From Planctomonas psychrotolerans (GTDB taxonomy: Bacteria; Actinomycetota; Actinomycetes; Actinomycetales; Microbacteriaceae), in contig NZ_SJEV01000001.1 of the NCBI RefSeq assembly GCF_008642235.1, forward strand, positions 2,560,400-2,624,399: a stretch of 64,000 bases of DNA. Direction: 5' to 3'. Positions 15,121 through 57,694 of the stretch are shown piece by piece (within the stretch, counting starts at the first letter, position 1; each line of letters opens with the position of its first letter). The notes below the pieces were generated by a model, which made no database searches, had not been told where the DNA came from, and saw only the letters and a program-made list of their open reading frames with translations. Position numbers and translations under genes: made by a program.

Positions 15121-15372
15121 CGTGGCGGCCCCGGACGTCAAGGTGCGTCCCTTCGATGGGCTCGGGGACCGTGCGGTGCGTCCCTTGGACGAGCTCGGGG
15201 ACCGTGTGGGCGTCCCTTCGATGGGTTCAGGGACCGTGTGGTGCGTCCCTTTGACAGCTCAGGGGCCGTGTGGGCGTCCCTTCGACGGGCTCAGGGCCCG
15301 GGACCGCGTGGGCGTCCCTTCGACAAGCTCAGGGACCGTGCGGTGCGTACGGTGACTGGCGGTATGTCGCTC

Positions 15373-20372: not shown

Positions 20373-21166
20373 CCGTGATCGGATCGAGTCGGGCGCTGCA
20401 CGAGCTGCCGGTGCCCGACTCGACCGACCGGCTGCGGCTCGGCTGGGCGGCGCTCACCGACGTCGGACGGCGCAGACCGCACAACGAGGACAGCCTGCTC
20501 GCCTCCCCGCCGCTCTTCGTGGTCGCCGACGGGATGGGCGGCCATTCCGCGGGCGACTTCGCCAGCGCGGCCGTCGTCACCCGCCTCGCCGAACGCATCA
20601 CGGGCCCGTTCATCTCGGCGGGCGACGTGGAGGAGGCCCTCCGCATCGCCGAGGCGGACATCGCCCTCGTATCCCGGCACTCGCTGCTCGGTACGGGCAC
20701 CACGGTGACCGGGGTTGCGCTCACCCTCGTCGGAGGGCAGCCGCAGTTCCTCGTCTTCAACATCGGCGACTCTCGCGTGTACTCCTGGCGGGGCAACCGC
20801 CTGGAGCAGGTGACCGTCGACCACTCCGTGGTGCAGAGCATGGTCGACGCGGGCACCATCACCCGGGACCAGGCGGAACGACACCCGGACAGCAACATGA
20901 TCACGCGGGCGATCGGCTTCGCCGACCCGCCGATCCCGGACTACTGGCTGATCCCCGCCACCGCGGGGCTGCGCCTCGTGGTGTGCTCCGACGGCCTGAA
21001 CGGCGAGCTCCTCGATCACGACCTCCGGGACCACGTCGGTTCTGGCGCCGACGCCGCATCGACCGCGCGGACACTGGTCGACGCCGCCCTGGAGCACGGG
21101 GGCCGGGACAACGTCTCGGTCATCGTCGTCGACGTGTTCGGGAGCGCGAACGAGGGCACCGCGTAG
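20369..21166 (+). CDS. PP2C-family Ser/Thr protein phosphatase
   Basis: Metal-dependent phosphatase likely opposing the adjacent kinase; 265 residues, soluble. PP2C motifs in order are RRPHNEDSLL, FVVADGMGGHSAGD (metal-binding Asp in DGMGGH at 54-59), FNIGDSRVYSWRG, VCSDGLNGEL and GRDNVSVIVVDV. All metal-coordinating aspartates appear present. ATG 20369 overlaps the FHA stop; the longer frame upstream is a shadow. A 148-bp gap separates it from the kinase gene. Confidence 0.93.
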   Translation: MTVIGSSRALHELPVPDSTDRLRLGWAALTDVGRRRPHNEDSLLASPPLFVVADGMGGHSAGDFASAAVVTRLAERITGPFISAGDVEEALRIAEADIALVSRHSLLGTGTTVTGVALTLVGGQPQFLVFNIGDSRVYSWRGNRLEQVTVDHSVVQSMVDAGTITRDQAERHPDSNMITRAIGFADPPIPDYWLIPATAGLRLVVCSDGLNGELLDHDLRDHVGSGADAASTARTLVDAALEHGGRDNVSVIVVDVFGSANEGTA

Positions 21167-21233: not shown

Positions 21234-21314
21234 TAACGGCAGGTGCATACGTTGTGAGCCGGACCGAACCCGAACGAATCCGGTGTGCGCCGCCGTACCC
21301 GAAGGGGGGAAACT

Positions 21315-22733
21315 GTGGCACGACGACTGCCCTCCACACCTCCCACTCTGCCGGGCTTCTCCTACATCACGGTCCTCGGCTCCGGCGGATTCGCCGACGT
21401 CTTCCTCTACGAACAGAACCTGCCGCGCCGCCAGGTCGCCGTCAAGGTGATGCTCGCCGAAGTCGTCAATGACTCCGTGCGACAGATGTTCCAGGCCGAG
21501 GCCAACCTCATGGCCCAGTTGAGCACCCATCCGTCGATCCTCACGGTCTACCAGGCCAGCGTCTCGGCGGATGGCCGCCCCTACCTCGTGATGGAACTCT
21601 GCTCGTCGTCGCTCGGCCAGCGCTACCGCCGCGAATCGATCCCCGTGGCCGACGTGCTGCGCATCGGCATCAAGATCGCCAGTGCGGTCGAGACGGCGCA
21701 CCGCGCGGGGGTGCTGCACCGCGACATCAAACCCTCCAACATCCTCACCACCGCGTACGGCAACCCCGTGCTCTCCGACTTCGGCATCGCCGCGACGCTG
21801 AGCGAGTCCGACACTCCGGAAGCGGTCGGTCTGTCGATTCCGTGGTCGGCGCCCGAGGTGCTGAACGACGACTCGTCCGGCACCATAGCCAGCGAGGTGT
21901 GGTCGCTCGGCGCCACCATCTACTCGCTGCTCGCCGGACGTTCGCCGTTCGAGGTGACCGGCGGGTCGAACACGTCGGCGGATCTGATCGCACGGATCGC
22001 CAAGGCGAAGCCGGGTCCGATCGGCAGGGCCGACGTGTCTCCCCAGCTGGAACGCACCCTGCAGCGAGCGATGTCGAAGCGGCCGGATGCGCGCCCCGGC
22101 GACGTGATGGAACTCATCCGCGAACTGCAGTCGGCCGAGCTCGAACTCGGGGTGGCGCAGACGCCCGTCGAGGTCGCGATGGACGACTGGGCCCTCGCGA
22201 CGGTCGCGGACCTCGACGACCGCACCCGGATCAAGGGCGTTCCCGCCGTGAACCCCGACGCCCCGGGGCGCCGTCGCCGTCGGCAGCCGGTCGCCGCGGC
22301 GTCGGGCGCGCAGAGTCAGGTCGGCACTCTCATCCGGCAGAGCCGAAGCGCCTACCCGACCGGAACGGGCGTGCCCCGGCCGAGCCGCCAGAGGACGGTG
22401 CTGACCTGGGCGCTCGTCGCCGTGGCGGTGCTCGCCATCGCCTTCGGCGCCACGGCCACCGCGGTGATGATCCGCTCCACCACGAACGACCTGCCGCGCG
22501 TCGGCGCGATTTCCGCGTCGACCACCGAGAACACCGTCGTCTTCTCCTGGGCCGACCCGGGGCGTCTGCCGGATGATCGCTACGAGGTGCGCCTCGACGG
22601 GCAACCGAGCGTGCAGCAGGCCTCGCGTTTCACGAGTGCCGCCGAACCCGGGGACCGGGTGTGCGTAACGGTCGCGGTGGTGCGCAACGGCACCACCGGA
22701 GCGCCCTCCAGCGAGAAGTGCGTGGACTTCTAG
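21315..22733 (+). CDS. Membrane Ser/Thr protein kinase with extracellular FN3-like domain
   Basis: A 472-residue kinase. The kinase domain fills residues 15-280: glycine loop LGSGGFADVF, catalytic Lys44 in VAVKVM, HRD at 135-137 in LHRDIKPSNIL, DFG at 155-157, and WSAPEVL. One transmembrane helix is near residues 363-386. The extracellular part of about 85 residues looks like a fibronectin type III sandwich with two cysteines (CVTVAVV and SEKCVDF); PASTA repeats are absent. The GTG start at 21315 follows GGGGGGAAA. The large FN3-containing surface protein starts 15 bases downstream. This matches the Pkb2-type kinase of the Bifidobacterium PFNA cluster in context. Confidence 0.93.
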   Translation: MARRLPSTPPTLPGFSYITVLGSGGFADVFLYEQNLPRRQVAVKVMLAEVVNDSVRQMFQAEANLMAQLSTHPSILTVYQASVSADGRPYLVMELCSSSLGQRYRRESIPVADVLRIGIKIASAVETAHRAGVLHRDIKPSNILTTAYGNPVLSDFGIAATLSESDTPEAVGLSIPWSAPEVLNDDSSGTIASEVWSLGATIYSLLAGRSPFEVTGGSNTSADLIARIAKAKPGPIGRADVSPQLERTLQRAMSKRPDARPGDVMELIRELQSAELELGVAQTPVEVAMDDWALATVADLDDRTRIKGVPAVNPDAPGRRRRRQPVAAASGAQSQVGTLIRQSRSAYPTGTGVPRPSRQRTVLTWALVAVAVLAIAFGATATAVMIRSTTNDLPRVGAISASTTENTVVFSWADPGRLPDDRYEVRLDGQPSVQQASRFTSAAEPGDRVCVTVAVVRNGTTGAPSSEKCVDF

Positions 22734-22748: not shown

Positions 22749-25700
22749 ATGATGCGCGCCTGGCTCTCCCGTCGCCGGTCGGCGGTGGTCACCGCGACCA
22801 GCGGAACCCTGATCGCCGCGCTGATCGCGACGGTCGCCGTCGTCTCCGGCGGTTACAGTGCACAGCGTGTCGACCTCAATGACGGCGCGGTCTGGGTCAC
22901 GAACGGGAACGAGCGCGCGATCGGCAGGGCCAACACCGCCGTGCTGGAGCTCAACTCGGTCATTCCCGCGCAGGGCACCGACATCGACGTGGTGCAGGGT
23001 GGGGAGTCCGTGCTCCTCTTCGACCGCGGCAACAGCAAGGTGGACATCGTCGACCCCGCCACCAGCACGATCGACGCCAGTGTCCCGGTGCCCCCGAGCA
23101 ACCCCGACATCTTCGTCGAACAGGGCCGCGTGGTCGTCGCCTCCCCGGAGACCGGCGAGGTGTGGATCCGGGATGCCGATGCCTTCGACGACTTCGACGT
23201 GGAATCCGAACCCACCCTGAGCCTCGGGGCCGGAACCGTGGCGAGCGTCGATGCCGACGGCCTGCTCTTCGCCTTCTCGCCCGACAGCGGCGAGCTGTAC
23301 CGTGTGCCGACCGCGACCGGCGACTCCGTCGACTCGGTGGAGAACGTGCCCCTGGAGGCGGGCGAGGCACCGCGCCAGGTGACCAGCGTCGCCGGCCGCC
23401 CCGCCGTCTACGATCCGGAGGCGCGCGCTCTGGTGTTCGACGGGCGACGGATCGACCTGTCGGGGCTCATCCCGGCCGACGTGCCCGCCGTCGTGCAGGA
23501 GCCGGCACTGTCCGGCACGGACCTGCTGATCGCCCACCCGGGCGGCGTCGTCGGCGTGCCGCTCGGCGGAAGTGCGCCCCGCGCCCTCCTCGAGGGGGCG
23601 TACGGGCCGCCGGCCGCCCCGGTGTCGGTCGCCGGGTGCGACTACTCCGCCTGGGGCGACGGCACCGCGTGGAGACGCTGCGACGGCGACGCCGTCGGAA
23701 CCGCATCCCAGCTCGTCGACTCACCGACGGATCCCCGGCTCGAATACCGGGTCAACAACAATCGGGTCGTGCTCAATGATGCGCTCGGCGGGATGTCCTG
23801 GGCGGTGCAGCGGGGCAACGACGTGATCGACAACTGGGACGCGCTGATCGACCGCGACCAGAGCCAGCAGGTCGTGGAGGAGCAGAGCGTCGACACGCCG
23901 GCCGCCTTCGTCGAGGTGCAGCAGCCGCCCGTGGCGGTGGACGATGAATTCGGCGTACGGGCCGGGCGGGCCAACCCGTTGCCGGTGCTGCTGAACGATT
24001 ACGATCCGAACGGCGACGTGCTCCTGATCAGCGAGGTGACGCCTCTCGATGAGTCGGTCGGCCGCCTCGACCTCATCAACGATCGTCGCCAGGTGCAGAT
24101 CACCGTTGCACCGGATGCGTCCGGCCGGTTCTCGTTCGACTACACGATCACCGACGGGCGGGGCGGCACCGCCACCGCCACCGTCACCGTCCTGGTGCGC
24201 TCGCCGGAGGAGAACTCACCGCCGCAGCAGGTGCGGTCGACGACGGGCGTCGTGCAGTCGGGAGCCCGGCTCACCACCGAGGTGCTGGGGGACTGGTACG
24301 ACCCGGACGGTGACGCGTTCTACCTCACCCGGGCCGCCGTGGCGGAACCCGACCAGGTGAGCTGGCAGCCGGACGGGACCGTCGTGTTCACCGACCAGGG
24401 CGCCGGAGGTGAGTCCAAGCCGATCGCGCTCTCCGTGTCCGACGGCATCGCCGAGGGCGCGGGGGTGCTCACGGTGTCCGTGCGGACCGCCGGCTCGGTC
24501 CCCATCGTGACCGAGCCGTTCGCGGAGCTCGCCAATGCCGGGTCGGAGATCACCATCCAGCCTCTGCGGCACGTTCGCGGAGGCAGCGGCACCGTCCGGT
24601 TGACCAACGTGGCCGTGCCGGCCGGCACGCGCATCACGCCGGACTACGACGGCGGCACCTTCCGATTCGTCAGCTCGGAAGCACGAACCCACCTCCTCGA
24701 GTACACCGTGAGCGACGGCACCTCCACCGCCACGGGCGTCGTACGCGTGGAGGTGTCCGCGCCGCTCGACCCCAACACCCGCCCCATCACCGCGACCCAC
24801 ACCGTCTTCCTGCGCCAGCTCAGCACCCAGAACGTCGATGTGCTGGCCACCGACGTCGACCCGGCCGGGGGCGTGCTCCTCGTCACCGAGGCGTTCGACG
24901 TGCCGGTGGAGTCGGGGCTGCAGGTGCAGATCTTCGATCAGCGCCTGCTGCGCGTCACGGCCACCCAACCCCTCGAGGGTCCGGTCTCGTTCTCCTACCG
25001 CGTGAGCAACGGCCTCGCCGATGCGGTGGGCACGGTGACCGTGATCGAGATCCCCCACGCCGGCATCACTCAACCACCCGTGGCCATGCCGGACAGCGTC
25101 TCGGTGCGCGTCGGCGACGCCATCGACATCCCCGTGCTGGCGAACGACACGCAACCCGACGGGGATCCCCTCACCCTGGCACCGGATCTTCCCACCCCGC
25201 TTCCGGCGGGTTCCGGCCTGCTCTTCGCATCGTCGAACGTGCTCCGCTACCTCGCCCCGGACAAGACCGGCAACTTCACGGCCGAGTATCGCGTCGAGGC
25301 GCCGGACGGCCAGTGGGCGACCGCACGGGTCTCGATCGCCGTGCGGGAGGTCGACGCGGATTCGAACAACCCACCGGTGCCGAAGACGGTGACCGCGCGC
25401 GTGCTCGCCGGCGAACGCGTGCGCATCCCGATTCCGCTCACCGGCATCGATCCCGACGGCGACTCCGTGCAGCTCCTCGGCCAGGAGACGAGTCCGACGA
25501 AGGGCGCGGTGCTCGAGGTCGGCGCCGACTGGATCGAGTACGAGGCGGGAAGCTACTCGGCGGGAGCGGACACCTTCGCGTACGCCGTCACCGACAGTGT
25601 CGGCGCCCGGGCGGTCGGCACCGTCCGGATCGGCATTGGCACGCGCCCCGACGGCGCCAGGAACCCGATCGCCATCGCCGATGAGGTGACGGTGCGCCCC

Positions 25701-28631
25701 GGACGCACCGTACTGGTGCAGGTGCTCGCCAACGATTCCGACCCGGACGGCAGCCCCCTCTCCGTGACCGGTGTCGCACCCACGGAGCCCGGTGTAGCGG
25801 CCACGGTCGAAGGCGACGTGGTCCGCGTCGTCGCACCGACCGAACCGGGCCGGTACGGCTTCGTCTACGACATCGAGAACGATCGAGGCGGAACGAGTTC
25901 CACCTTCCTCACCGTCGTCGTCGCCGATGACGCCCCCCTAGCGCGCCCCGTGGCCAAGGACACCGTGCTGAGTCTGTCCGACGTCGTCGGGCGCCGCACG
26001 GTCGACGTGAACGTGCTCGACAACGTGTTCTTCGCCGACGGACCCGTGCGCTCCCTCGGCCTCGGACTCCAGCCCGGGTACGACGGATCGGCGCAGGTCG
26101 TCGCGGGCAAACGCATCCGCGTCACGCTCGGCAGCGAGCGCCAGATCATCCCCTTCCGCGTCAGCCACCCCGACGACTCCGGAGTCACCGCGTACGCGTT
26201 CGTGTGGGTGCCCGGCTTCGCGGAGGCGTTGCCGCAGCTCAACCGCAACGCACCCCGGCTCACCGTGCAGAGCGGCGCCACCCTCACCATCCCGATCAAC
26301 GACCACGTGGTCGCCGTGAGCGATCGGAACGTGCGCCTCACCGACGCGAACAGCGTGCGGGCGACCCGGTCGAACGGCGGAGAACTCGTGGTCGACGCGC
26401 AGACGCTCCGTTTCACCAGCGAGGACCGCTACTTCGGGCCGGCCTCCATCTCGTTCGAGGTCACGGACGGCGCCACCGCGGACGATCCGCGAGGGAACCG
26501 TGCCACCCTCGTGCTTCCGATCACCGTGACGCCCCGCGCCAACCAGCCACCGTCGTTCAACGGCGCCGTGCTCGAGCTCGAGCCCGGCGAGGAGCGGCAG
26601 GTGGACCTGCTGAAGCTCACGACGTACCCGTATTCCGAGGATCGCGACGACCTGCGCTACTCCGTCATCGGTGCGGCCCCGACCGGCTTCTCCGCCACGG
26701 TCAGCGGTTCCACGCTGACCCTCAGTGTGCAGGAGGCGGCCGTCGGCGGTACGGCCGGCACCGTGACCATCGGGGTGCGGGACGCCCTGAACGAGGGTGT
26801 GGCCGGGCGGATCGAGTTGCGGGTCGTGCCGTCGACGCGCCCGCTCGCCCAGCCCCAGCTCGATGTCGCCATCGCCCCCCGGAACACCACCACGGTGGTC
26901 GACGTGCTGCAGAACGATGCGGCGACCAACCCGTTCCCCGGCAAGCCGTTGCGGGTGGTCGCCGTGCGGGGAATCGACAGCGCCTCCCTGCCCGCCGGTG
27001 TGTCGGTCTCCCCGAGCGATGACCGATCGCACCTGACGATCGCCGTGGCCGGCACCGTGCCGCCGGGCGACGTGAGCGTGCAGTACCAGGTGCTCGACGC
27101 GACCGGCGACCCCGCCCGGGCCGCCTGGGGAACCGTCCGCATCTCCATTCAGGACCGTCCCGATCCCGTCGTCGGATTGCGAACCACCGGATTCGGCGAC
27201 CGGCGCATCTCGGTGGCCTTCGATCCGGGAGCGTTCAACAACTCGCCCATTCAGGGCTACGAGGTGCGGGCGGTGCGGGATGGAACCGTCGTCTCGTCGC
27301 GCACCTGCGAGTCCACCACCTGCGACGTGACCACCGACGGCAACGGTCCGTCGAGCCGCGTACGCATCGAGGTGCTCGCCCGCAACGCCATCGGGCTGTC
27401 CGATCCCGTCGCACTGACCGGACTCTGGTCGGATGTGGTGCCGCCGGCGCCCACGGGCCTCACCGCCGAACCGCTCGACCGGGGACTCCGGGTGATCTGG
27501 AATGCCGTGGACACCGGACGGGGGAGCGCCGTCACGAACTACGTCGTCTCCGTCGGCGGGGTGACGCAGGAGGTTCCGGCCGGCCGGACCTCCATCGAGT
27601 TCCGGAACGTCGTGGAGTCCAACGGGGGATCCGTCGGATATTCCGTGAGTGCGCGGAACGGCGCGCAGGTGACGAGCGCCGACGCGTGGAACACGTCCTC
27701 CTCGACCGGCACCCCGCTCGGGGCACCGCGGGCCATCGGCGCCCCGGCGGCCACGCCCGCGCACGACGCGGCGGGTACCGTCTCCCTGACCTGGCAGCCG
27801 TTCAGCGGGGACGGGCGCGACGGCATCCGCTACTGGGTCGCGGCCTATTCCGGCGCCGAAACGCCGTCGTGCACCGTGAGCACCGAGGGCGTGGTGCCGT
27901 GGAACGCCACCGTGTCCGGCGCGGTGCCCGCACAGAGCAGCTCCGGCCACACCTTCAGCGGTCTCGCCGCGAACGCCGAACACCGCTTCGCCGTGATCGC
28001 GGCGAACAGTCAGGGCTGCACGCTCGTCACCGACATCGCCGCGGTCACTCCGCGCGTCGCACCGACGAATGCCCAGGCGACCGTCGCGATCGCCCCCGGT
28101 GGAGACCTCACCGGGGTGGGCGGCCGGTCGCGACCGGTGCTGTCCGACGTCACCTACTCGTCCGGCGGGGGAACACCGACGACGGAGTTCTTCTACCGCA
28201 TCGCGGGGACGACCACCGGAGCACCGGTCGCGCGCGGGGACGGCCTCACGCTCGCGCCGTTCGGCGAACCGGTCAGCATCGAGGTGCAGGTCGTCGAGAC
28301 GCATGGCGACGGCACGCGACTCGAGAGCGCGTGGTCGCCCGCCGTTTCAGCAGGCGTCGCCGTCGACACCACCGCTCCGGGGATGCGATTCATCCCGACG
28401 GTGAGCGAGGTGCCGGACCTGTCGGGTACGTTCGAGTGGTTGGGCTCCCCCACCGGCTCCGGTTACACCGGCGTGGAGTACTCGATCGACGGCGGAGTCA
28501 CCTGGATCGCGATGGCCGGACCCGGCGCCAGCGACGTGACCGGGGGACCGGAGGCGCCCGCCGCGGTGACCGTCCGTGTCCTGGCCAACGGACTGTCGTA
28601 CACGCAGCAATATAGGGGAAACGAGCGATGA
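22749..28631 (+). CDS. Giant cell-surface protein: propeller-like head, tandem cadherin/Ig-like repeats, C-terminal FN3 domains
   Basis: 1960 residues. A basic N-terminus and one hydrophobic segment (about residues 12-38) indicate a signal anchor or uncleaved signal. Residues 45-370 have repeating short strands and look beta-propeller-like. From about 390 to 1470 there are some ten Ig/cadherin-like repeats with the signature LxxNDxDPDGD (for example VLLNDYDPNGD, VLANDTQPDGD, VLANDSDPDGS). From about 1473 onward there are four to five FN3 domains, with paired cysteines near 310-325, 1520 and 1720-1760. No LPXTG or C-terminal anchor is seen. Its TGA overlaps the moxR ATG. Likely an exported adhesin or scaffold; binding partners are unknown. 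Confidence 0.9.
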   Translation: MMRAWLSRRRSAVVTATSGTLIAALIATVAVVSGGYSAQRVDLNDGAVWVTNGNERAIGRANTAVLELNSVIPAQGTDIDVVQGGESVLLFDRGNSKVDIVDPATSTIDASVPVPPSNPDIFVEQGRVVVASPETGEVWIRDADAFDDFDVESEPTLSLGAGTVASVDADGLLFAFSPDSGELYRVPTATGDSVDSVENVPLEAGEAPRQVTSVAGRPAVYDPEARALVFDGRRIDLSGLIPADVPAVVQEPALSGTDLLIAHPGGVVGVPLGGSAPRALLEGAYGPPAAPVSVAGCDYSAWGDGTAWRRCDGDAVGTASQLVDSPTDPRLEYRVNNNRVVLNDALGGMSWAVQRGNDVIDNWDALIDRDQSQQVVEEQSVDTPAAFVEVQQPPVAVDDEFGVRAGRANPLPVLLNDYDPNGDVLLISEVTPLDESVGRLDLINDRRQVQITVAPDASGRFSFDYTITDGRGGTATATVTVLVRSPEENSPPQQVRSTTGVVQSGARLTTEVLGDWYDPDGDAFYLTRAAVAEPDQVSWQPDGTVVFTDQGAGGESKPIALSVSDGIAEGAGVLTVSVRTAGSVPIVTEPFAELANAGSEITIQPLRHVRGGSGTVRLTNVAVPAGTRITPDYDGGTFRFVSSEARTHLLEYTVSDGTSTATGVVRVEVSAPLDPNTRPITATHTVFLRQLSTQNVDVLATDVDPAGGVLLVTEAFDVPVESGLQVQIFDQRLLRVTATQPLEGPVSFSYRVSNGLADAVGTVTVIEIPHAGITQPPVAMPDSVSVRVGDAIDIPVLANDTQPDGDPLTLAPDLPTPLPAGSGLLFASSNVLRYLAPDKTGNFTAEYRVEAPDGQWATARVSIAVREVDADSNNPPVPKTVTARVLAGERVRIPIPLTGIDPDGDSVQLLGQETSPTKGAVLEVGADWIEYEAGSYSAGADTFAYAVTDSVGARAVGTVRIGIGTRPDGARNPIAIADEVTVRPGRTVLVQVLANDSDPDGSPLSVTGVAPTEPGVAATVEGDVVRVVAPTEPGRYGFVYDIENDRGGTSSTFLTVVVADDAPLARPVAKDTVLSLSDVVGRRTVDVNVLDNVFFADGPVRSLGLGLQPGYDGSAQVVAGKRIRVTLGSERQIIPFRVSHPDDSGVTAYAFVWVPGFAEALPQLNRNAPRLTVQSGATLTIPINDHVVAVSDRNVRLTDANSVRATRSNGGELVVDAQTLRFTSEDRYFGPASISFEVTDGATADDPRGNRATLVLPITVTPRANQPPSFNGAVLELEPGEERQVDLLKLTTYPYSEDRDDLRYSVIGAAPTGFSATVSGSTLTLSVQEAAVGGTAGTVTIGVRDALNEGVAGRIELRVVPSTRPLAQPQLDVAIAPRNTTTVVDVLQNDAATNPFPGKPLRVVAVRGIDSASLPAGVSVSPSDDRSHLTIAVAGTVPPGDVSVQYQVLDATGDPARAAWGTVRISIQDRPDPVVGLRTTGFGDRRISVAFDPGAFNNSPIQGYEVRAVRDGTVVSSRTCESTTCDVTTDGNGPSSRVRIEVLARNAIGLSDPVALTGLWSDVVPPAPTGLTAEPLDRGLRVIWNAVDTGRGSAVTNYVVSVGGVTQEVPAGRTSIEFRNVVESNGGSVGYSVSARNGAQVTSADAWNTSSSTGTPLGAPRAIGAPAATPAHDAAGTVSLTWQPFSGDGRDGIRYWVAAYSGAETPSCTVSTEGVVPWNATVSGAVPAQSSSGHTFSGLAANAEHRFAVIAANSQGCTLVTDIAAVTPRVAPTNAQATVAIAPGGDLTGVGGRSRPVLSDVTYSSGGGTPTTEFFYRIAGTTTGAPVARGDGLTLAPFGEPVSIEVQVVETHGDGTRLESAWSPAVSAGVAVDTTAPGMRFIPTVSEVPDLSGTFEWLGSPTGSGYTGVEYSIDGGVTWIAMAGPGASDVTGGPEAPAAVTVRVLANGLSYTQQYRGNER

Positions 28632-29632
28632 CCGATGTACTCGACAGGACAGGCGACCCCATGACCATGACCGCGGAGCAGGCACGACGCTTCGAGGAGA
28701 CCTTCGGCCGCCTCGTCGCCAACGTGGAACAGGTGCTGCTCGGCAAGAACCAGGTCATCCGGTTGTCGTTCACCGCACTGCTCAGCGAGGGACACCTCCT
28801 GCTGGAGGACTACCCGGGCACGGGGAAGACGTCTCTCGCCCGCGCCATTGCGCAGACCGTGCGCGGCGTCAGCAACCGCGTGCAGTTCACCCCCGACCTG
28901 CTCCCCGGTGACATCACCGGCGTGAGCGTGTACGACCAGCGCACCGGGCGGTTCGAGTTCCACCGCGGACCGATCTTCGCGAACATCGTGCTCGCCGACG
29001 AGATCAACCGGGCGAGCCCGAAGACGCAGTCGGCGCTGCTCGAAGTGATGGAGGAGGGGCACGTCACCGTCGACGGCAATTCCCATCCGGTGGGGACACC
29101 GTTCATGGTCATCGCCACGCAGAACCCCATCGAACAGGCCGGCACCTACCGGCTTCCGGAGGCGCAGCTCGACCGGTTCCTCATGAAGGCCTCGATCGGC
29201 TACCCCGACCACCTGTCGACCATGCGCATCCTGGAGGGGTCGGGAGCGAAGGCGCACGAGACGACGGTGCCGTCGATCATCTCCGCGGAGACCGTGACCG
29301 AGATGGCCGCGGACGCACGAACGGTGCACGTCGATCCGTCGGTGTACGACTACGTGTCCCGGCTCGTCGACGCCACCCGATCGGCGACCGAGGTGCGTCT
29401 TGGCGCGTCGGTGCGCGGAGCGCTCGCTCTCGTGCGCGCGGCGAAGACCCTCGCGGCGGCGAACGGTCGTCACTACGTGATTCCGGATGACGTCAAGGCC
29501 CTCTCCGAACCCGTGCTCACGCACCGTCTCGTGCTCGACCCCGAGGCGGAATTCGACGGCGTCACTCCGTCGAGTGTGATGGCTCAGGTGCTCATCGAGA
29601 CGGCCCCGCCGAGTGATCGGCACGCCGTGTGA
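28628..29632 (+). CDS. MoxR-family AAA+ ATPase
   Basis: 334 residues. MoxR ATPases act as chaperones for maturation of multiprotein or cell-surface assemblies, usually encoded with DUF58/VWA proteins. Walker A is LLLEDYPGTGKTSLARA (around 63-70), Walker B VLADEINRASPKTQSALLE (from about 121), and sensor 1 is in MVIATQNPIEQAGTY. The lid region with FDGVTPSSVMAQVL closes the protein. The ATG overlaps the surface-protein stop and the TGA overlaps the DUF58 GTG, so it is translationally coupled on both sides. It was presumably recruited to handle the giant protein or the DUF58/transglutaminase-like pair. Confidence 0.94.
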   Translation: MTDVLDRTGDPMTMTAEQARRFEETFGRLVANVEQVLLGKNQVIRLSFTALLSEGHLLLEDYPGTGKTSLARAIAQTVRGVSNRVQFTPDLLPGDITGVSVYDQRTGRFEFHRGPIFANIVLADEINRASPKTQSALLEVMEEGHVTVDGNSHPVGTPFMVIATQNPIEQAGTYRLPEAQLDRFLMKASIGYPDHLSTMRILEGSGAKAHETTVPSIISAETVTEMAADARTVHVDPSVYDYVSRLVDATRSATEVRLGASVRGALALVRAAKTLAAANGRHYVIPDDVKALSEPVLTHRLVLDPEAEFDGVTPSSVMAQVLIETAPPSDRHAV

Positions 29633-31086
29633 CCTCCACCCGACCCGGGGGACGCTTCCTCTCCGAGCGGCGGACGGGGGCTCACGTCGATACGTCGTCG
29701 CACACCGCGCACACGCTGAGCCGCGGCAGGACCCGCACCTCGGCACCCGCCCACAGTGCCACCGGCACGCAGGGACTCATCAACGCGCGCACGCGCATCG
29801 TCGGCACACGCACGGACCCGCTCGCCGATGCCCTCGTCGCCCTCGTGCGCCTGGCCACCGCGTTCGGCGCGGGCGCGGTGCGGATGGCGACCGCGGTGGC
29901 CGGTGTCGTCACCCCGCTCGGCTGGTCGATCGTCGGGCTGGTCGTCGTCGGCTTCACCGTGGGTTACGGGCTCGGCTGGCTGGAGCTGGTGGCCGTGGCC
30001 TGGGTCGGAGTGGTGCTGGTCGTGGCGGCTGTGCTCTCGCTTCTCGCCCGCAACTCGTTCGAGATCGGCGTGTTCCTGCCGAGCACGCGCGTGGTCGTGG
30101 GCGAGCGTGCACCGGCGCAACTCACCGTGCACAATCCGACCGCCCGCCGCCTCGTCGGCGTGACGGTGGAGGTTCCGGTGGGTGGAGGTCTGGCCGAGTT
30201 CGCGGTCCCGTCGCTTCGGCCCGGGAGCTCGTTCGAGGACGTCTTCGTGGTGCCGACGACGCGGCGCGGCGTCATCCGGATCGGACCGGTGCGAACGGTG
30301 CGCGGTGACCCCGTCGGTCTGCTCCGCCGGGAGATCACCGGGGGCGACCCGATCGACCTCTACGTGCATCCGCGCACCATCCCGGTACCCAGTACCTCGA
30401 CCGGCTTCGTGCGCGACCTCGAGGGCAATCCGACGCGCGATCTCGCGAACAGCGACGTGTCGTTCCATGCCCTGCGCGAGTACCTGCCCGGTGATGAGCG
30501 ACGACACATCCACTGGCGCAGCACCGCCAAGACCGGGGTGCACATGGTGCGCCAGTTCGAGGAGACGCGACGCAGCCACCTGATGATCGCGTTGAGCCTC
30601 GCGTCGAGCGACTACTCGACCGAGGAGGAGTTCGAGCTCGCGGTGAGCGTGGCCGCGTCGCTCGGCGTGCGGGCCATCCGGGACGCCCGGAACGTGTCCG
30701 TGGTCGCCAGTGAGCGCACCCCGGAGTTCGCGAAGCGCAAGGTGTACGCGCTCAAGCGGCTGAGCGTGACCAGCCGCCCTCGGCTCCTCGACGACCTCAG
30801 CACCGTGCACCACGCCGCCACCGCTCTGCCCATTCCCGACCTCGCGCGGGTCGCGGCGGACTCCGTGGCCGGCATCTCCGTGGCCTTCGTCGTCTGCGGC
30901 ACGGGTGCCACCAAGTCCGAGCTCCGCGCCGCGTCGACGAAGTTCCCCGCGGGTGTCGAAGTCGTCGCGGTCGTGTGCGACCCCGGGATGACCCCGGCCC
31001 TCCGACGCGTGTCCGAGCTCAGCGTGCTCACCATCGGCTACCTCGAGGACCTGACCCGGTCGCTGTCCCGATCGGCCGCCGCGTGA
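29629..31086 (+). CDS. DUF58 membrane protein
   Basis: 485 residues. A Ser/Thr/Arg-rich N-terminus of about 65 residues precedes two close transmembrane segments (roughly 95-140). A beta-rich region then carries the diagnostic DUF58 motif YLPGDERRHIHWRSTAKTG near residues 285-305. The remainder resembles a von Willebrand-like fold, as in other DUF58 proteins that partner MoxR ATPases. The GTG start overlaps the moxR stop, and its TGA overlaps the GTG of the transglutaminase-like gene. Confidence 0.92.
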   Translation: MTSTRPGGRFLSERRTGAHVDTSSHTAHTLSRGRTRTSAPAHSATGTQGLINARTRIVGTRTDPLADALVALVRLATAFGAGAVRMATAVAGVVTPLGWSIVGLVVVGFTVGYGLGWLELVAVAWVGVVLVVAAVLSLLARNSFEIGVFLPSTRVVVGERAPAQLTVHNPTARRLVGVTVEVPVGGGLAEFAVPSLRPGSSFEDVFVVPTTRRGVIRIGPVRTVRGDPVGLLRREITGGDPIDLYVHPRTIPVPSTSTGFVRDLEGNPTRDLANSDVSFHALREYLPGDERRHIHWRSTAKTGVHMVRQFEETRRSHLMIALSLASSDYSTEEEFELAVSVAASLGVRAIRDARNVSVVASERTPEFAKRKVYALKRLSVTSRPRLLDDLSTVHHAATALPIPDLARVAADSVAGISVAFVVCGTGATKSELRAASTKFPAGVEVVAVVCDPGMTPALRRVSELSVLTIGYLEDLTRSLSRSAAA

Positions 31087-33527
31087 ACACCTCCGGCGTT
31101 CGGTCACCGCTCTTCTTCGTGATCAACACGGCGGCGTTCCTCCTCGTCAGCGCGCTCGCGGCGGCCGCGCTCTGGCCCATCTACGCCAGCCGCGACATCC
31201 TGCTGCTCATCATCGGCGCACTCTGCGCCGGTGCACTCGTCGCGGTTCTCGGCGCCCTCTACCGCTGGTCGAGTGCCACCGTGCTGTTCGCGACCGTGGC
31301 GGTGTTCCTCGCCCTTGGAACGCCGCTCGCCCTTCCGGGCCAAGCGATGTTCGGGGTGCTGCCCACGGCGGAGAGCCTGCTCGACCTGCTTCGCGGTGCC
31401 GGACTCGGCTGGAAGCAGCTGCTGACCATCACGCTGCCGGTGGGCGGGTACCAGCAGTTGCTGGTGCCGGCGTTCATCCTCGTCCTGCTGTCGACGGTGA
31501 TCGGACTGTCGCTGACGCTGCGTGCACGCTACGGCGAACTCGGCGTCCTCGCGCCGACCGTGCTGTTCATCGCCGCGATAGCGTTCGGCCCCGACGTCGC
31601 CGCGTTCCCGGTCGAGCTCGCGCTCGCGTTCCTCGTGGTTTCGCTGCTGTGGTTCGTCTGGCTGCGCTGGTACCGGCGCACCCGTGCCATCCGCACGCTC
31701 ACCGTGCAGAACGGGGCACCGGTCGAGTCGGTGACGGAGCAGCGATTCGGGGGCGCCCGCACTCTGCTCGGTGCCGTGGCCACGATCGCGGTCGCGCTCA
31801 TGGTCTCGGCGGCCGCCGTCGTCGTCGTGCCGCCGACCGGCACTCGCGACGTGTTGCGCACGGTGGTCGAGCAGCCGTTCGACCCCCGGGTTCACGCGAG
31901 CCCGCTCGCCGGGTTCCGGTACTACCTGCAGCAGGGCCGGGACACCCAGACGCAGTTGACCGTCACCGATCTGCCTCGCGAGGCCGGCCTGCGGATTGCG
32001 ACCCTCGACTCCTACGACGGCGTGGTCTACAGCGTGGGCGGGGAAACCGGCTCAGGCGCATCGGGCACCTTCACCCGGGTGCCCTACGAACTGGACCAGT
32101 CCGGGGTGGACGGGGATCGGGTCATCGTCGAGGTGACGGTCGACTCCTACAGCGGCGTGTGGTTGCCCATCCTGGGCAAGCTCGAGTCGGTCGAGTTCGG
32201 TGGGCCGAACGCCGAGGCCCTCGAGGACTCGTTCTTCTACAACGACGTCACCGGCACCGCGGTGGTGACTACCGGCCTCCGCGCGGGCGACTCGTATCGG
32301 CTCACCACCGTCGTGCCCCGGGAGCGGAGCGAGGATGCGCTCGAGTCGGCTCGTCCCGGCACCGCGGTCGTGCCCGACATCGGGGCTCTGCCCGATGAGC
32401 TCGTGCCCTCGCTCCAGCGGTACATCGCCGGGGTGAACCGGCCCGGGGAGCGCCTGCTGGCCATGCTGGACGGCCTCCGCGCGGACGGCTACGTCAGCCA
32501 CGGCGTATCTCCCGATGAGCCGTTCAGCCGGTCGGGCCACAGTGCGGACCGGATCAGCCAGCTGCTGACGGAGCGGCCGATGATCGGTGACGCCGAGCAG
32601 TACGCGGTGACCGCCGCGCTGATGGCCACGGAGCTGGGGTTCCCCGCCCGCGTGGTGTTCGGACTCCGTCCCGATGCGGACGATCGCGAGAGCGCGCCGG
32701 CGGACGGGATGCCGCTCACGGGCTCGGACGTCACCGCCTGGATCGAGGTCGACACACTGGACGGCTGGGTGAGCCTCGATCCGAATCCGGAAGTCCGGGA
32801 CATCCCGGAGGCCGAACCGGACGAACCCACCGTCGTCTCCCGCCCGCAGTCGATCCTGCCGCCGCCGGAGGACGACCGAATCGACCTCGACGACCAGCTG
32901 CCGCCGGAGACCTCCGAGGAGGAGCAGGAGGAGGCCAATCCCTTCCTCGCGCTGGTGTTCGGGATCCTCCGGGTGACCGGGTGGGTGCTCCTCGCCCTCG
33001 CGGTGCTGACCTCGCCGTTCCTCGCGATCCTCGCCGCCAAGCTGCGCCGACGCCGCAGGCGCCGACGGGACGGTACGCCTCTCGACCGCATCCAGGGGGG
33101 ATGGCAGGAGTTCGCCGACACCGCGATCGACCACGGCTACGAGATTCCGCGGTCGTCGACCCGCATCGAGGTCGCCGAAACCGTGGGGGGAACCGCCCCG
33201 CTCGCCCTGGCCCGGGCGGCCGACCGCGCGGCCTTCGGACCGGCCGTGCCCGACGAGCGCTCGGCGGAACAGGTGTGGCGAGTGGTCGGTGAACTGCGCG
33301 CAGCGCTTTCGCGAGGTCGCTCGCGACGGGAGCGCATCGGTGCGCTGATGTCGATGCGGTCGCTTCGACGCCACGGATCGCGACTCCCGCAGCGGCCGGA
33401 CACCGTCCCGGGAACCGACGCGAGGACCAGGGCCGGTGATGCGGGCGCCAGCGCGGGGAGCAGCGCAGAGAATCCAGCCGGTTATGCGCCGAGCGCCCGA
33501 CCGGCGAGGCGGAACTCGCCCTCCTGA
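31083..33527 (+). CDS. TgpA-like membrane protein with degenerate transglutaminase domain
   Basis: 814 residues. Six or seven transmembrane helices lie within about residues 8-250, an extracytoplasmic transglutaminase-like domain is near 480-580, and a last helix follows around 620-650 before a basic tail. The core motif aligns well (IGDAEQYAVTAALMATELG then FPARVVFG), but the catalytic Cys is replaced by Ala504 (GCC at 32592-32594) and the catalytic His by Thr551 (in VTAWIEVD); only Asp566 in SLDPNP remains. It is therefore probably a non-catalytic scaffold. Start GTG 31083 overlaps the DUF58 stop; the longer upstream frame is a shadow. Confidence 0.9.
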   Translation: MNTSGVRSPLFFVINTAAFLLVSALAAAALWPIYASRDILLLIIGALCAGALVAVLGALYRWSSATVLFATVAVFLALGTPLALPGQAMFGVLPTAESLLDLLRGAGLGWKQLLTITLPVGGYQQLLVPAFILVLLSTVIGLSLTLRARYGELGVLAPTVLFIAAIAFGPDVAAFPVELALAFLVVSLLWFVWLRWYRRTRAIRTLTVQNGAPVESVTEQRFGGARTLLGAVATIAVALMVSAAAVVVVPPTGTRDVLRTVVEQPFDPRVHASPLAGFRYYLQQGRDTQTQLTVTDLPREAGLRIATLDSYDGVVYSVGGETGSGASGTFTRVPYELDQSGVDGDRVIVEVTVDSYSGVWLPILGKLESVEFGGPNAEALEDSFFYNDVTGTAVVTTGLRAGDSYRLTTVVPRERSEDALESARPGTAVVPDIGALPDELVPSLQRYIAGVNRPGERLLAMLDGLRADGYVSHGVSPDEPFSRSGHSADRISQLLTERPMIGDAEQYAVTAALMATELGFPARVVFGLRPDADDRESAPADGMPLTGSDVTAWIEVDTLDGWVSLDPNPEVRDIPEAEPDEPTVVSRPQSILPPPEDDRIDLDDQLPPETSEEEQEEANPFLALVFGILRVTGWVLLALAVLTSPFLAILAAKLRRRRRRRRDGTPLDRIQGGWQEFADTAIDHGYEIPRSSTRIEVAETVGGTAPLALARAADRAAFGPAVPDERSAEQVWRVVGELRAALSRGRSRRERIGALMSMRSLRRHGSRLPQRPDTVPGTDARTRAGDAGASAGSSAENPAGYAPSARPARRNSPS

Positions 33528-33641
33528 GGCGCCGACCGCCACCACCGTCTCCTCCCCGTTTCCCCGACCGTGCTTCCCCGTGTCCTCCACAGATCGCGAC
33601 GCGCCCGGCCGCTGACCCGCAGGGACTGCTGACATGGCGGG

Positions 33642-36600
33642 ATGAGACTGAGCCTGCCGCCGCCACCCGAGACGTCGCCGCCCGCGCCCTTTCCGGTACT
33701 CGGGGTGGTTGCGCCACTCATCGCCGCCGCCGTGCTGTTCGCCGTGACCCGTTCGCCCTACGCGTTGATCTTCGCGGCCCTCAGTCCGGTCATCCTCGTC
33801 GCCGGGATCCTCGACGCGCGGGTCTCGGCGCGACGGCGGAGGCGGCGTGCCCGGCGCATCGAGAAGGACGCGGTGGCACGCCTGCGCGACGAGGTGGCGG
33901 CCGTGCATGCCGTGGATCGGGCCAGTCGGCTCACGGCCACGCCGTCGACACGCGCGATCGTCTCCGGTGCGGCTCCCGACTCGCTGCTCTGGCGCGGATT
34001 CGGCACGCGCGAGCGACCGTTCGTGCTCGGGCTGGCCCCGGTTCCGAGCGGCGTGTCGATCGACGGCATCCCCGGCAGTGCCGACGCCCGGGCGCTCGTC
34101 GACGAGGCGGCGGTGCTCCGGCACGCCCCGGCGACCGTAGGGCGCATCCCCGATGTCGGCCTGTGCGGACCGCCGGTGCTGACGAGCTCGGTCGCCCGCG
34201 GACTGGTGCTGCAGATCGCGTTTCTCGTGCATCCGGCCGAGGCGAACTTCTGGCAGCGACCGTCGGGCGAGGACTGGAGGTGGGTGGAGCGACTCCCGCA
34301 CTGGGGAGGGCGGGTACGGTCACTCGCGACGGATTCGGCGACAGGGTCCGATCCGCCGACGGGAACGGATTCACCGACGGAGTTCGATCCGCTGACCGGA
34401 ACGGAGCCGCCGACGGGGTCCGATTCGCCGACGGGGACGCCGACCGCGCAGGTGCGCATCCGGGTGGGCGGGGAGGACATCGTGATCGCCATGGCCGAGT
34501 CGGCATCGGCTCTGCCTCGCGTCTGCGACACCGTGCTGCTGCTCGTCGGGGCGACGGAGGCGCGGCTCCTGTCCGGTAGTTGCACGGCCATCGCCGGATC
34601 TGTGATCCGACCCGACCTGGTGTCCCGTGCCACGGCCGAGGCGGTGGCCCGCCGGTTGGCCGATCGCGCCACGCGCATCGCGACGCGGAACGCGGAACTG
34701 CCCGACCGGGTGGAGCTGCAGGAACTCGTGTCGCTGGATGCGCTTCCTCCCGGTGCGGCCGCGTCCGGGTCGCTCGCGTCCGGCTCGCTCGCGTCCGGTG
34801 CAGCGAGGCGTCGCACCGCACACGGGCTGCTTCGGGCGGTGCTCGGTCGAACCTCCTCGGGGGTGTTCACCATCGATCTCGCGCGGGATGGTCCCCACGC
34901 GGTGATCGGCGGAACGACCGGAAGCGGAAAGAGCGAACTGCTGATCACCTGGGTGGTGAGTTCCGCCCGCACCACGACTCCCGCCTTCCTCACCTTCCTG
35001 CTCGTGGACTTCAAGGGCGGGGCGTCCTTCGACGCCCTCGCCCGACTGCCGCACTGCGTCGGGTTCCTCACCGACCTCGACTCGGGAGCGGTGCGGCGAG
35101 CCATCGAGAGCCTCCGGGCCGAGCTGCGGCACCGCGAGCGATGGCTGCGCGAGCGCGGCATCCGTTCCCTCTCCGACGCGGATGAGGAGGGGATTGGCGA
35201 GCCGCGAGTGAGCATCCTCGCCCGCCTCGTGATCGTGGTCGACGAGTTCGCCGCCATGCTCGCCGAGTTCCCGGAACTGCACGACGTCTTCGCCGACATC
35301 GCCTCCCGAGGGCGCTCGCTGGGCATCCACCTGATCCTCTGCACGCAACGGCCCGTCGGCGTCGTGCGCGATGCGGTGCTCGCCAACTGCGGACTCCGGC
35401 TCTCGTTGCGGGTGACCTCCCGGGCCGACAGCATGGCGGTGATCGGCAGCGACGCCGCGGCGTCCCTTCCGCAGAGCGCGCGGGGTCGCTGCCTGGTGAG
35501 CATCAGCGGAGCGGCGGTCGTCCCGGTCCAGATCGCCACCGTGGACGCGGAGCGGCTGGCGCGGTTCGTCGACTCGGTGCGGAAGAACGCGACGGGAGAA
35601 CCGCCGCGGCGACCGTGGCTCGATCCGCTGCCCGCGGTGCTGGCGCTGTCCGACCTGGAGGACCCGACCGTGCACCGCGGCGACCTCACCGGGGCCATGG
35701 TCTTCGGACTCACCGACGAGCCGGCGGAGCAACGACGGAGCTACGCCGCATGGCATCCTGAGCGCGACGGCTCCCTGCTCGTGCTCGGCACGCACCGGTC
35801 GGGCAAGACCTGTGTTCTCGCCACGCTCGCCGCCGTGGGTACCGGGCCATCGCCGTCCGCCCCGCGGTTCGTGCGGGTGCCGTCGGATCCGGTCGACACC
35901 TGGGACGCCGTCTCGGCCGCGTTCGAGGACCTGCGGGCCGGTGTCCGCCGCGCGCGGATCCTGGCTCTCGACGACGTCGACGCCCTCCTGGCCCGGTACG
36001 ACCCGGACTACGCGCAAGTGTTCCTCGACATGCTGTCCGCGTTGGCTCGGGAGGGCCCCGGTGCGGGCATCCGCCTGGTGCTCACCGCGCAGCGCTTGTC
36101 CGCCGGGCTGTCGGGTCTTGCTCCGCTGCTCGGTCGGACGTTGCTGCTCCGCATGCCGAACCGTCAGGAGCACGCGCTCGCGGGTGGTGACGTCTCGACC
36201 TTCGATTCCGACCTGGTCCCCGGTGGCGGGTGGTGGCGCGGCTTCCGGGTGCAGGTGGCGCTCTGCGGGGCGGCCCGCGCGACGCCTGCGACGTCCGGGC
36301 GGCACGCCGCCACGTCCGCACCTGTCGTCGCAGGTGACCGTGCCGTGCTGCGCTCCCGGGCCGCGACGGTCCGCGCTGACGAGGCGGGCCGCCTGACCGC
36401 GGACGACCGCGCCACCAGCACCGACCGGCGCCCGGATGATGCGTCCGAACCTTCGACCGATCCCGTCATGGTGTTCCGTGCGGGCGACTCCTACGCGATC
36501 GTCAGCACGCGGCCGGCCGCGGTGGTTCCGCTGCTGCGGGTCGCGGCGGCGAGCGCGACGTCGTCGGGTATCCGGCTCGACATCGCGTATCTGTCCGTCA

Positions 36601-36884
36601 TCCCGCCCACCGGTGTGCTGGCGCGTGCCGCTTCGCCGACCGGCGGGGGGATCATCGACGTCATTCTCGGTGATCCCGACGAGTGGCAGGCCGCATGGGG
36701 TGCGCTCGCGGCGGCGTCGCGTGCGCGACACGTGGTGTTCGACGCCTGCTCGGCGCGGGACTACCGGACGCTCACCCGTTCACCGACGTTGCCCCCGCCG
36801 CTCCGCTCGCACGGACGATCCGTGTGGTACCTACCGCCCACCGATCGTCCTGCCCGACCGGAGCGACGGCAATGGCCCCCGTAA
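33642..36884 (+). CDS. EccC/EssC-like FtsK/SpoIIIE membrane ATPase
   Basis: 1080 residues. Two transmembrane helices (about 18-58) are followed by a basic cytoplasmic stretch and a degenerate first ATPase-like region with LLWRGFGTRERPFVLGLAP, resembling the start of EccC. Two FtsK domains come next. Domain 1 has Walker A GGTTGSGKS (423-431), FLLVDFKGGASF and Walker B LVIVVDEFAAML. Domain 2 has Walker A GTHRSGKT (716-723) and LALDDVDALL. A Thr/Pro/Asp-rich insertion near 230-265 is expanded by short repeats. It is likely the motor of a type VII-like export system. It lies 114 bp after the transglutaminase-like gene and ends the cluster; no WXG100, EccB, EccD or mycosin gene is adjacent. Confidence 0.88.
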   Translation: MRLSLPPPPETSPPAPFPVLGVVAPLIAAAVLFAVTRSPYALIFAALSPVILVAGILDARVSARRRRRRARRIEKDAVARLRDEVAAVHAVDRASRLTATPSTRAIVSGAAPDSLLWRGFGTRERPFVLGLAPVPSGVSIDGIPGSADARALVDEAAVLRHAPATVGRIPDVGLCGPPVLTSSVARGLVLQIAFLVHPAEANFWQRPSGEDWRWVERLPHWGGRVRSLATDSATGSDPPTGTDSPTEFDPLTGTEPPTGSDSPTGTPTAQVRIRVGGEDIVIAMAESASALPRVCDTVLLLVGATEARLLSGSCTAIAGSVIRPDLVSRATAEAVARRLADRATRIATRNAELPDRVELQELVSLDALPPGAAASGSLASGSLASGAARRRTAHGLLRAVLGRTSSGVFTIDLARDGPHAVIGGTTGSGKSELLITWVVSSARTTTPAFLTFLLVDFKGGASFDALARLPHCVGFLTDLDSGAVRRAIESLRAELRHRERWLRERGIRSLSDADEEGIGEPRVSILARLVIVVDEFAAMLAEFPELHDVFADIASRGRSLGIHLILCTQRPVGVVRDAVLANCGLRLSLRVTSRADSMAVIGSDAAASLPQSARGRCLVSISGAAVVPVQIATVDAERLARFVDSVRKNATGEPPRRPWLDPLPAVLALSDLEDPTVHRGDLTGAMVFGLTDEPAEQRRSYAAWHPERDGSLLVLGTHRSGKTCVLATLAAVGTGPSPSAPRFVRVPSDPVDTWDAVSAAFEDLRAGVRRARILALDDVDALLARYDPDYAQVFLDMLSALAREGPGAGIRLVLTAQRLSAGLSGLAPLLGRTLLLRMPNRQEHALAGGDVSTFDSDLVPGGGWWRGFRVQVALCGAARATPATSGRHAATSAPVVAGDRAVLRSRAATVRADEAGRLTADDRATSTDRRPDDASEPSTDPVMVFRAGDSYAIVSTRPAAVVPLLRVAAASATSSGIRLDIAYLSVIPPTGVLARAASPTGGGIIDVILGDPDEWQAAWGALAAASRARHVVFDACSARDYRTLTRSPTLPPPLRSHGRSVWYLPPTDRPARPERRQWPP

Positions 36885-57167: not shown

Positions 57168-57370
57168 GGTCCCTGAGCCCGTCGAAGGGACGCACCTCGA
57201 CGGTCCCTGAGCCTGTCGAAGGGACGTTACCGATCACGGTCCCTGAGCCTGTCGAAGGGACGCAACACGTCGCGTTCCCTGAGCCTGTCGAAGGGACGCA
57301 ACCCGTCGCGGTCCCTGAGCCTGTCGAAGGGACGCAACCCGTCACGGTCCCTGAGCCTGTCGAAGGGACG
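57168..57370. repeat. Six direct copies of the GGTCCCTGAGC repeat downstream of proS
   Basis: 25-bp units start at 57168, 57202, 57238, 57274, 57310 and 57346. They are nearly identical, all forward, and spaced 36 bp apart (first interval 34), with 9-11 base spacers that are themselves similar, such as CAACCCGTCAC. The spacers are far too short and too alike for a CRISPR array. Confidence 0.92.
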
Positions 57371-57534
57371 TGTGGCCGGATGTTGTCGGTGGGCCGAGAC
57401 CCCGAGGGCGACACGCCGATCCGCCGGTGACGCGCGGGCCGTGCAGACTCCCGCGGTCGGCATACCGTCCGTGCGCGTCCGCAGGGACGCGCCAGCAGTC
57501 GGTGGCCGCGTGTCCTGCGCCCGCGTGCCTCCCG

Positions 57535-57694
57535 CGTCCCTTCGACGAGCTCAGGGACCGTGAGGTCGGGACTCTTCGACAAGCTCAGGGACCGTGAGGT
57601 CGGGACTCTTCGACAAGCTCAGGGACCGTGTGGTTGCGTCCCGTCGACGGGCTCGGGGGCCGTGGGGTCGTGTCCATTCTTCAAGCTCAGGGAC
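57535..57694. repeat. Five reverse-oriented copies of the same repeat upstream of nusA
   Basis: Units lie at about 57535-57559, 57570-57593, 57604-57627, 57637-57661 and a degenerate one at 57670-57694, with a period of 33-35 bp. They face the six forward copies across about 165 bp of unique sequence (57371-57534). Together the blocks form a long-range inverted repeat. The whole proS-nusA gap of 670 bp holds no convincing gene. Confidence 0.9.

What the first reader, a model, noticed from the sequence alone, without database searches (positions are those of the whole stretch)
33642..36884. EccC/EssC-like ATPase with no visible WXG100 partner or other T7SS core gene
Two N-terminal membrane helices, a degenerate first ATPase-like region and two intact FtsK domains are the EccC/EssC plan minus the third ATPase domain. 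Yet neither flank has EccB, EccD, EccE, mycosin or a WXG100 gene, and only 118 bp follow before ald. Either substrates and channel are elsewhere in the genome, or this ATPase serves a different secretion route.
Basis: partly seen in the sequence, partly recalled or inferred. Interest (0 to 1): 0.6.

Follow-up and report, generated by a model that had tools for sequence, protein, structure and literature searches.

The report
EccC-like ATPase with distant WXG100 partner
The gene encodes a shortened relative of the motor that drives type VII protein secretion, and its likely cargo, a small WXG100 protein, is encoded about 0.6 million bases away beside groEL; across one bacterial family the two genes are kept and lost together, which suggests a stripped-down secretion system without the usual membrane-channel proteins.

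Summary
ORF 33642-36884 (1080 aa) is an EccC/EssC-family ATPase, not an FtsK/TraB translocase, by HMM, sequence and predicted fold. It ends a kinase-FN3-MoxR-DUF58-transglutaminase cluster of the PFNA type, and no T7SS gene flanks it. A partner does exist elsewhere: the complete genome has exactly one WXG100 gene, beside groEL, and no EccB or EccD hit. Across 120 genomes of the family, this groEL-linked WXG100 and the short ATPase occur together in 86, both are missing in 33, and one draft genome has only the WXG100. On a marker tree the two traits changed together (6 of 6 supported independent pairs, p about 0.03). Some genomes that lost the WXG100 keep the PFNA cluster but only ATPase remnants. 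Very small genomes keep both, with the ATPase cut to 318-346 aa and one motor domain. The WXG100 carries WxG and the C-terminal YxxxD/E export signal in 46 of 46 orthologues. Best reading: a minimal, unlinked, T7SS-like EccC + WXG100 pair without EccB/EccD. Export itself is inferred. It is a new variant of a known kind.

The parts
33642..36884 (+). short EccC/EssC-like membrane ATPase, 1080 aa
   Evidence: ORF; NCBIfam EssC 9.6e-67, EccCa 8.1e-62; PDB 4nh0 EccC 1.5e-52; AF2 model best fold match EccC
33696..33815 (+). two predicted N-terminal membrane helices (residues 19-58)
   Evidence: helices in the AF2 model; hydrophobic sequence; membrane insertion is inferred
34020..34574 (+). D0: degenerate ATPase-like domain (residues 127-311)
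   Evidence: AF2 model; profile of the family aligns here with EccC
34833..35540 (+). D1: intact FtsK/SpoIIIE-type motor domain (residues 398-633)
   Evidence: Pfam PF01580 5e-29; catalytic residues 21/21; AF2 model
34911..34934 (+). D1 Walker A GTTGSGKS
   Evidence: G429, K430 invariant and S/T431 in 21 sequences
35223..35246 (+). D1 Walker B RLVIVVDE
   Evidence: D534, E535 invariant in 21 sequences
35697..36266 (+). D2: partly degenerate ATPase domain (residues 686-875)
   Evidence: AF2 model; Walker A Lys only in 13/21, Walker B D-D
36489..36833 (+). vestigial third RecA-like domain (residues 950-1064), no Walker motifs
   Evidence: AF2 secondary structure and confidence; identity as D3 is inferred from order
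30975..33527 (+). TgpA/transglutaminase protein of the PFNA-type cluster (context)
   Evidence: Pfam TgpA_N 5.5e-15, Transglut_core 1.9e-10
29629..31086 (+). DUF58 protein (context)
   Evidence: Pfam DUF58 2.7e-12
28628..29632 (+). MoxR-type AAA ATPase (context)
   Evidence: Pfam AAA_3 1.3e-61
22749..28631 (+). large Big_9/cadherin-like/FN3 surface protein (context)
   Evidence: Pfam Big_9 5.4e-68, fn3 2.1e-8
21285..22733 (+). Ser/Thr protein kinase (context)
   Evidence: Pfam Pkinase 2.5e-41
20369..21166 (+). PP2C-type protein phosphatase (context)
   Evidence: Pfam PP2C_2 9.1e-9
19257..20372 (+). FHA-domain protein (context)
   Evidence: Pfam FHA 7.3e-7

Best explanation
33642-36884 encodes the motor of a minimal type VII-like export pair. 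A short EccC/EssC-family ATPase (two membrane helices, D0, one fully conserved motor domain D1, decaying D2 and D3) sits in the membrane and, by analogy with EccC, binds the C-terminal YxxxE signal of a single WXG100 protein and moves this (probably homodimeric) protein across the membrane using ATP hydrolysis in D1. The WXG100 gene is not beside it but about 0.6 Mb away, convergent with groEL (G000:C1:1991296-1991586, minus strand). Shown here: family membership of both proteins, conserved motor residues and export signal, co-occurrence and coordinated loss of the two genes, no EccB or EccD match in the genome. Inferred: physical binding, secretion, homodimer state, and that no further dedicated channel protein is needed. 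The neighbouring PFNA-type cluster may regulate or use the export but is not its obligatory partner.
For: EccC/EssC not FtsK. One WXG100 gene in the complete genome, beside groEL. Co-occurrence over 120 family genomes: both in 86, neither in 33, WXG100 only in one draft, G060. Tree of AtpA-AtpG-AtpD from 78 genera: 10 changes of WXG100, 11 of the ATPase, shared except for G060; 6 independent pairs on strongly supported branches go the same way (median p 0.031; 10 pairs if unsupported branches are used). Three genomes without the WXG100 keep remnants of the ATPase gene without motor domains at the syntenic locus, next to an intact PFNA cluster (G032, G100) or next to PP2C (G016). Very small genomes keep both genes, the ATPase cut to 318, 338, 340 and 346 aa with a single motor domain whose key residues are kept, while the PFNA genes are not at the locus. 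The WXG100 keeps W-x-G and YxxxD/E in 46/46 orthologues and lies on the strand opposite groEL in 43/43 loci where groEL was seen, and also in the small genomes. EccD and EccB: no match in G000, but matches in 27/120 and 12/120 family genomes.
Against: No experiment shows export or binding. The number of strongly supported independent changes is small (6). Some T7SS parts (EccE, mycosin, EssB, EsaA, EssA, EsaB) were not searched in the whole genome. The curated NCBIfam cut-offs for EccC/EssC are not reached (225 of 778 bits). In EccC the signal is bound by the third ATPase domain (general knowledge), which is only vestigial here, so the signal would have to be read elsewhere.
Confidence: 0.72

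Rival explanations
1. The ATPase is a working part of the PFNA-type cluster (kinase, FN3 surface protein, MoxR, DUF58, transglutaminase), for example helping to assemble or export the large FN3 protein, and the match with WXG100 is a by-product of shared ancestry.
For: In 15 of 20 family loci it lies just downstream of this cluster, with in some at most a small zinc-ribbon/FHA gene between; kinase, phosphatase and FHA genes suggest joint regulation.
Against: The cluster survives intact where the ATPase is reduced to a remnant and the WXG100 is gone (G032, G100); the ATPase survives where the cluster is not at the locus (small genomes; Microbacterium and others with only PP2C; Bifidobacterium). 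The co-changes on the tree follow the WXG100. FN3-type proteins normally leave by Sec (general knowledge).
Confidence: 0.13
2. A full T7SS exists, with other membrane parts of the Firmicutes type (EssB, EsaA, EssA) or unrecognised ones elsewhere in the genome; the short ATPase is just its motor.
For: EssB/EsaA/EssA/EsaB, EccE and mycosin were not searched genome-wide; EssC is the top NCBIfam hit and the single-gene WXG100 resembles the Firmicutes kind.
Against: EccB and EccD not found; nothing T7SS-like in the window flanks; genomes of 1.4 Mb keep only a 318-346 aa ATPase and the WXG100 as recognised parts.
Confidence: 0.2
3. It is an FtsK/TraB-type DNA translocase.
For: The shared FtsK_SpoIIIE domain.
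Against: EccC/EssC E-values are smaller than FtsK's by about 50 orders of magnitude; a separate true FtsK is in the genome; the D0-D1-D2 order matches EccC.
Confidence: 0.02

Closest known systems
EccC (T7SSa motor, e.g. Thermomonospora curvata EccC 4nh0, EccC5)
   Same: two N-terminal helices, D0-D1-D2 order, intact D1, linker before D2, pairing with a WXG100 protein that bears YxxxD/E
   Different: D2 partly degenerate, D3 vestigial, no EccB/EccD found, gene not linked to the WXG100, below the curated family cut-off
EssC/YukB (T7SSb motor)
   Same: highest NCBIfam score; works in Bacillota with a single-gene WXG100
   Different: EssC carries N-terminal FHA domains in the same chain (general knowledge); here they are absent, and relatives encode a zinc-ribbon/FHA protein as a separate gene just upstream
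PFNA operon of bifidobacteria (PMC8430577)
   Same: kinase, FN3, AAA(MoxR), DUF58, transglutaminase in the same order
   Different: the described PFNA operon has 5-8 genes and no EccC-like ATPase
EsxA-type single WXG100 proteins (Poulsen 2014, PMC3935865)
   Same: one gene alone, WxG, C-terminal YxxxD/E pattern
   Different: that survey states that all actinobacterial WXG100 genes come in two-gene operons; this groEL-linked one does not

Membership tests
EccC/EssC ATPase family | closest to EccC/EssC and not to FtsK/TraB in sequence and fold | tested here: met
EccC/EssC ATPase family | two N-terminal membrane helices before the cytosolic domains | tested here: met
   predicted helices 19-36 and 40-58; insertion in the membrane not shown
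EccC/EssC ATPase family | catalytically intact D1 | tested here: met
   Walker A K and Walker B DE in 21/21
EccC/EssC ATPase family | three ATPase domains D1-D3 | tested here: not met
   D2 Walker A Lys 13/21, D3 remnant without Walker motifs; reduced to D1 alone in small genomes
EccC/EssC ATPase family | curated NCBIfam equivalog cut-off | tested here: not met
   225.5 of 778.4 bits (EssC), 209.9 of 509.15 (EccCa)
T7SSa (ESX) | EccB present | tested here: not met
   no PF05108 match in G000; 12/120 relatives match
T7SSa (ESX) | EccD present | tested here: not met
   no TIGR03920 match in G000; 27/120 relatives match
T7SSa (ESX) | EccE and mycosin present | not tested
   not searched genome-wide
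T7SSa (ESX) | two-gene esxB/esxA operon | tested here: not met
   single WXG100 gene in the genome
T7SSb (Ess/Yuk) | EssB, EsaA, EssA, EsaB present | not tested
   not searched genome-wide
T7SSb (Ess/Yuk) | FHA domains fused to the N terminus of the ATPase | tested here: not met
   Pfam finds only FtsK_SpoIIIE
Any T7SS | WXG100 protein with C-terminal YxxxD/E | tested here: met
Any T7SS | ATPase-dependent export of the WXG100 | not testable with these tools
   needs an experiment
PFNA cluster | pkb2-fn3-aaa-duf58-tgm in this order | tested here: met

The most novel reading that the evidence does not exclude
EccC-like ATPase plus one WXG100 protein is a complete, two-protein type VII exporter that needs no EccB/EccD-type channel, and in very small genomes works with a 318-346 aa ATPase holding a single motor domain, the smallest EccC-type motor seen here.
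Probability: 0.4. Interest if true: 0.82.

Novelty: new variant of a known kind. Interest (0 to 1): 0.62.

Why it matters
What the smallest working type VII machine is, and what forms the channel, are open questions. Here a pair of unlinked genes, co-inherited across a bacterial family and kept even in genomes of 1.4 Mb, offers a natural minimal system to test them. It also gives a likely partner to a class of orphan EccC-like ATPases and to orphan groEL-linked WXG100 proteins, including the single WXG100 of two bifidobacteria, and contradicts the view that actinobacterial WXG100 genes always come in pairs.

Tried and rejected
FtsK/TraB DNA translocase: rejected by HMM, sequence and fold. WXG100 partner near the ATPase: none in the window flanks or in 20 relatives' loci searched with this WXG100. 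The PFNA cluster as obligatory partner: rejected by remnants beside intact clusters and by the small genomes. Apparent exceptions to co-occurrence (G009, G011, G024, G027, G042, G061, G085, G087) turned out to carry divergent or shortened ATPases once a profile was used; only G060 (draft, 90 contigs, while its sister G119 has the gene) stays unexplained. Origin of the short form from the long PFNA-linked ATPases of Pseudoclavibacter, Demequina and Microbacterium: not supported; the family's short forms group together (SH-aLRT 89, not decisive) and the bifidobacterial short ones fall elsewhere. Paper searches for WXG100 with groEL, Microbacteriaceae or DUF58/MoxR found no description of this pair, but only open papers were searched.

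Full report
OBSERVATION. The 1080 aa ORF at 33642-36884 (+) is real, coding in composition, and conserved over a whole family. ald converges on it 118 bp downstream. Pfam finds one FtsK_SpoIIIE domain, 389-571. NCBIfam ranks EssC (9.6e-67) and EccCa (8.1e-62) far above FtsK (4.2e-13), although the curated equivalog cut-offs are not reached. The best solved relative is T. curvata EccC, 1.5e-52, and with a profile of 21 relatives 1.1e-98, against 7.1e-31 for FtsK. The AlphaFold2 model (mean pLDDT 79) shows two N-terminal helices and a stalk, D0 (127-311), D1 (398-633), D2 (686-875) and a small RecA-like remnant (950-1064). Its best PDB matches are EccC 2.8e-33, then EssC, then FtsK 2.3e-17. In 21 relatives the D1 catalytic residues are invariant, while the D2 Walker A lysine is present in only 13.

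SURROUNDINGS. Upstream lie FHA, PP2C, Ser/Thr kinase, a 1960 aa Big_9/FN3 protein, MoxR, DUF58 and a TgpA/transglutaminase protein. The last five match in order the PFNA cluster of bifidobacteria (PMC8430577), which as described there holds no such ATPase. In 15 of 20 family loci the ATPase lies downstream of this cluster; in the other five it follows PP2C and the cluster is not within the stretch fetched (about 11 kb upstream). In several relatives a zinc-ribbon/FHA gene lies between transglutaminase and ATPase; it is missing in the window. EssC carries FHA domains in the same chain, so this could be a split version (inference).

THE PARTNER. The genome (3.29 Mb, 2 contigs, 100% complete) has exactly one PF06013 match, 2.5e-16, at C1:1991326-1991577: a 97 aa protein whose gene converges with groEL, about 0.6 Mb from the ATPase. 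EccD (TIGR03920) and EccB (PF05108) give no match in this genome, although the same searches find them in 27 and 12 of 120 family genomes. The only other FtsK-type matches are the true FtsK and one weak hit below the cut-off.

CO-OCCURRENCE. With the WXG100 as query, 87 of 120 genomes have a clear orthologue (E about 1e-15 or better, 36-100% identity) and 33 do not. With the ATPase as query, the genomes fall into those with a short form and those with only long (about 1250-2000 aa) EccC/EssC proteins. Profile searches of the doubtful genomes show that 86 of the 87 have a short or shortened ATPase, and none of the 33 has an intact one. The one exception is a 90-contig draft (G060). Because relatives are not independent, I built a tree from AtpA, AtpG and AtpD of 78 genera: 10 changes for the WXG100 and 11 for the ATPase; 6 independent pairs on strongly supported branches agree (median two-sided p 0.031), 10 pairs if unsupported branches are allowed.

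COORDINATED LOSS AND REDUCTION. In G032 and G100, which lack the WXG100, the PFNA cluster is intact, but the ATPase gene is reduced to its N-terminal part (helices, stalk and start of D0 recognised in G032; stalk and start of D0 in G100), with no motor domain; in G016 a D0 fragment remains next to PP2C. Whether these remnants still make a protein is not known. Conversely, genomes of 1.4-1.7 Mb keep the WXG100 with its signal beside groEL and an ATPase of 318, 338, 340 or 346 aa next to or near the same gabD neighbour: two helices and one motor domain with its key residues kept, and still closest to EccC. The PFNA genes were not found in those 19 kb regions; I did not search the rest of those genomes for them.

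THE WXG100. In 46 orthologues compared, 46 have W-x-G and 46 have YxxxD/E near the C terminus; in 43 of 43 loci where groEL was seen it is on the opposite strand. The extended pattern of PMC3935865 fits by eye. That survey states that actinobacterial WXG100 genes always come in two-gene operons; this one does not. The groEL-linked WXG100 is also the only WXG100 found in Bifidobacterium subtile and B. tsurumiense, whose EccC-like ATPases have 690 and 640 aa, and it occurs in Winkia, Demequina and Pseudoclavibacter. In B. longum a WXG100 gene (BLGT_RS07530) is reported 31-fold up in stationary phase against lag phase (PMC9415070); I did not check that it is the groEL-linked one.

MECHANISM. Established for EccC (general knowledge): WXG100 dimers bind through the C-terminal signal and activate a multimeric motor whose essential catalytic domain is D1. 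The conservation here, strict D1, strict YxxxD/E, loose D2/D3, fits a motor stripped to that core. I infer export of the WXG100, perhaps with unknown companions. Neither secretion nor binding is shown.

NOVELTY. A new variant of a known kind: an EccC-like motor and one WXG100, unlinked, without recognised EccB or EccD. A limited, open-access literature search did not find it described.

Noticed in passing
window 33528-33641 and L075, L076, L082, L087, L088: Relatives have a zinc-ribbon plus FHA gene between the transglutaminase gene and the ATPase; the window has only 114 bp there. It may be a split-off counterpart of the FHA domains of EssC.
   Followed up: partly
L234 11226-12182, L235 11148-12164, L236 6482-7504 (-), L237 10837-11877: EccC-like ATPases of only 318-346 aa with two helices and one motor domain in 1.4-1.7 Mb genomes.
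   Followed up: partly
L131 9275-13738, L133 9326-13951, L137 9317-13792: In Pseudoclavibacter, Demequina and Microbacterium kyungheense a full-length (about 1490-1540 aa) EccC/EssC-like ATPase lies at or near the PFNA-type cluster.
   Followed up: partly
G065:C5:349144-350439 and others: Over a dozen family genomes have an EccD-like match but no EccB match, including one of the same genus as the window; these may be a different membrane protein or another partial T7SS.
   Followed up: no
window 34335-34440: Low-complexity repeat (TGSDPPTGTDSPTEFDPLTGTEPPTGSDSPTGT) inserted in D0 of this ATPase, low confidence in the model and absent from many relatives.
   Followed up: no
window 15122-15355, 57227-57463, 57560-57800, 63047-63328: Repeats that translate as variants of RPFDKLRDR/CPSTGSG, apparently an interspersed short repeat family.
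   Followed up: no
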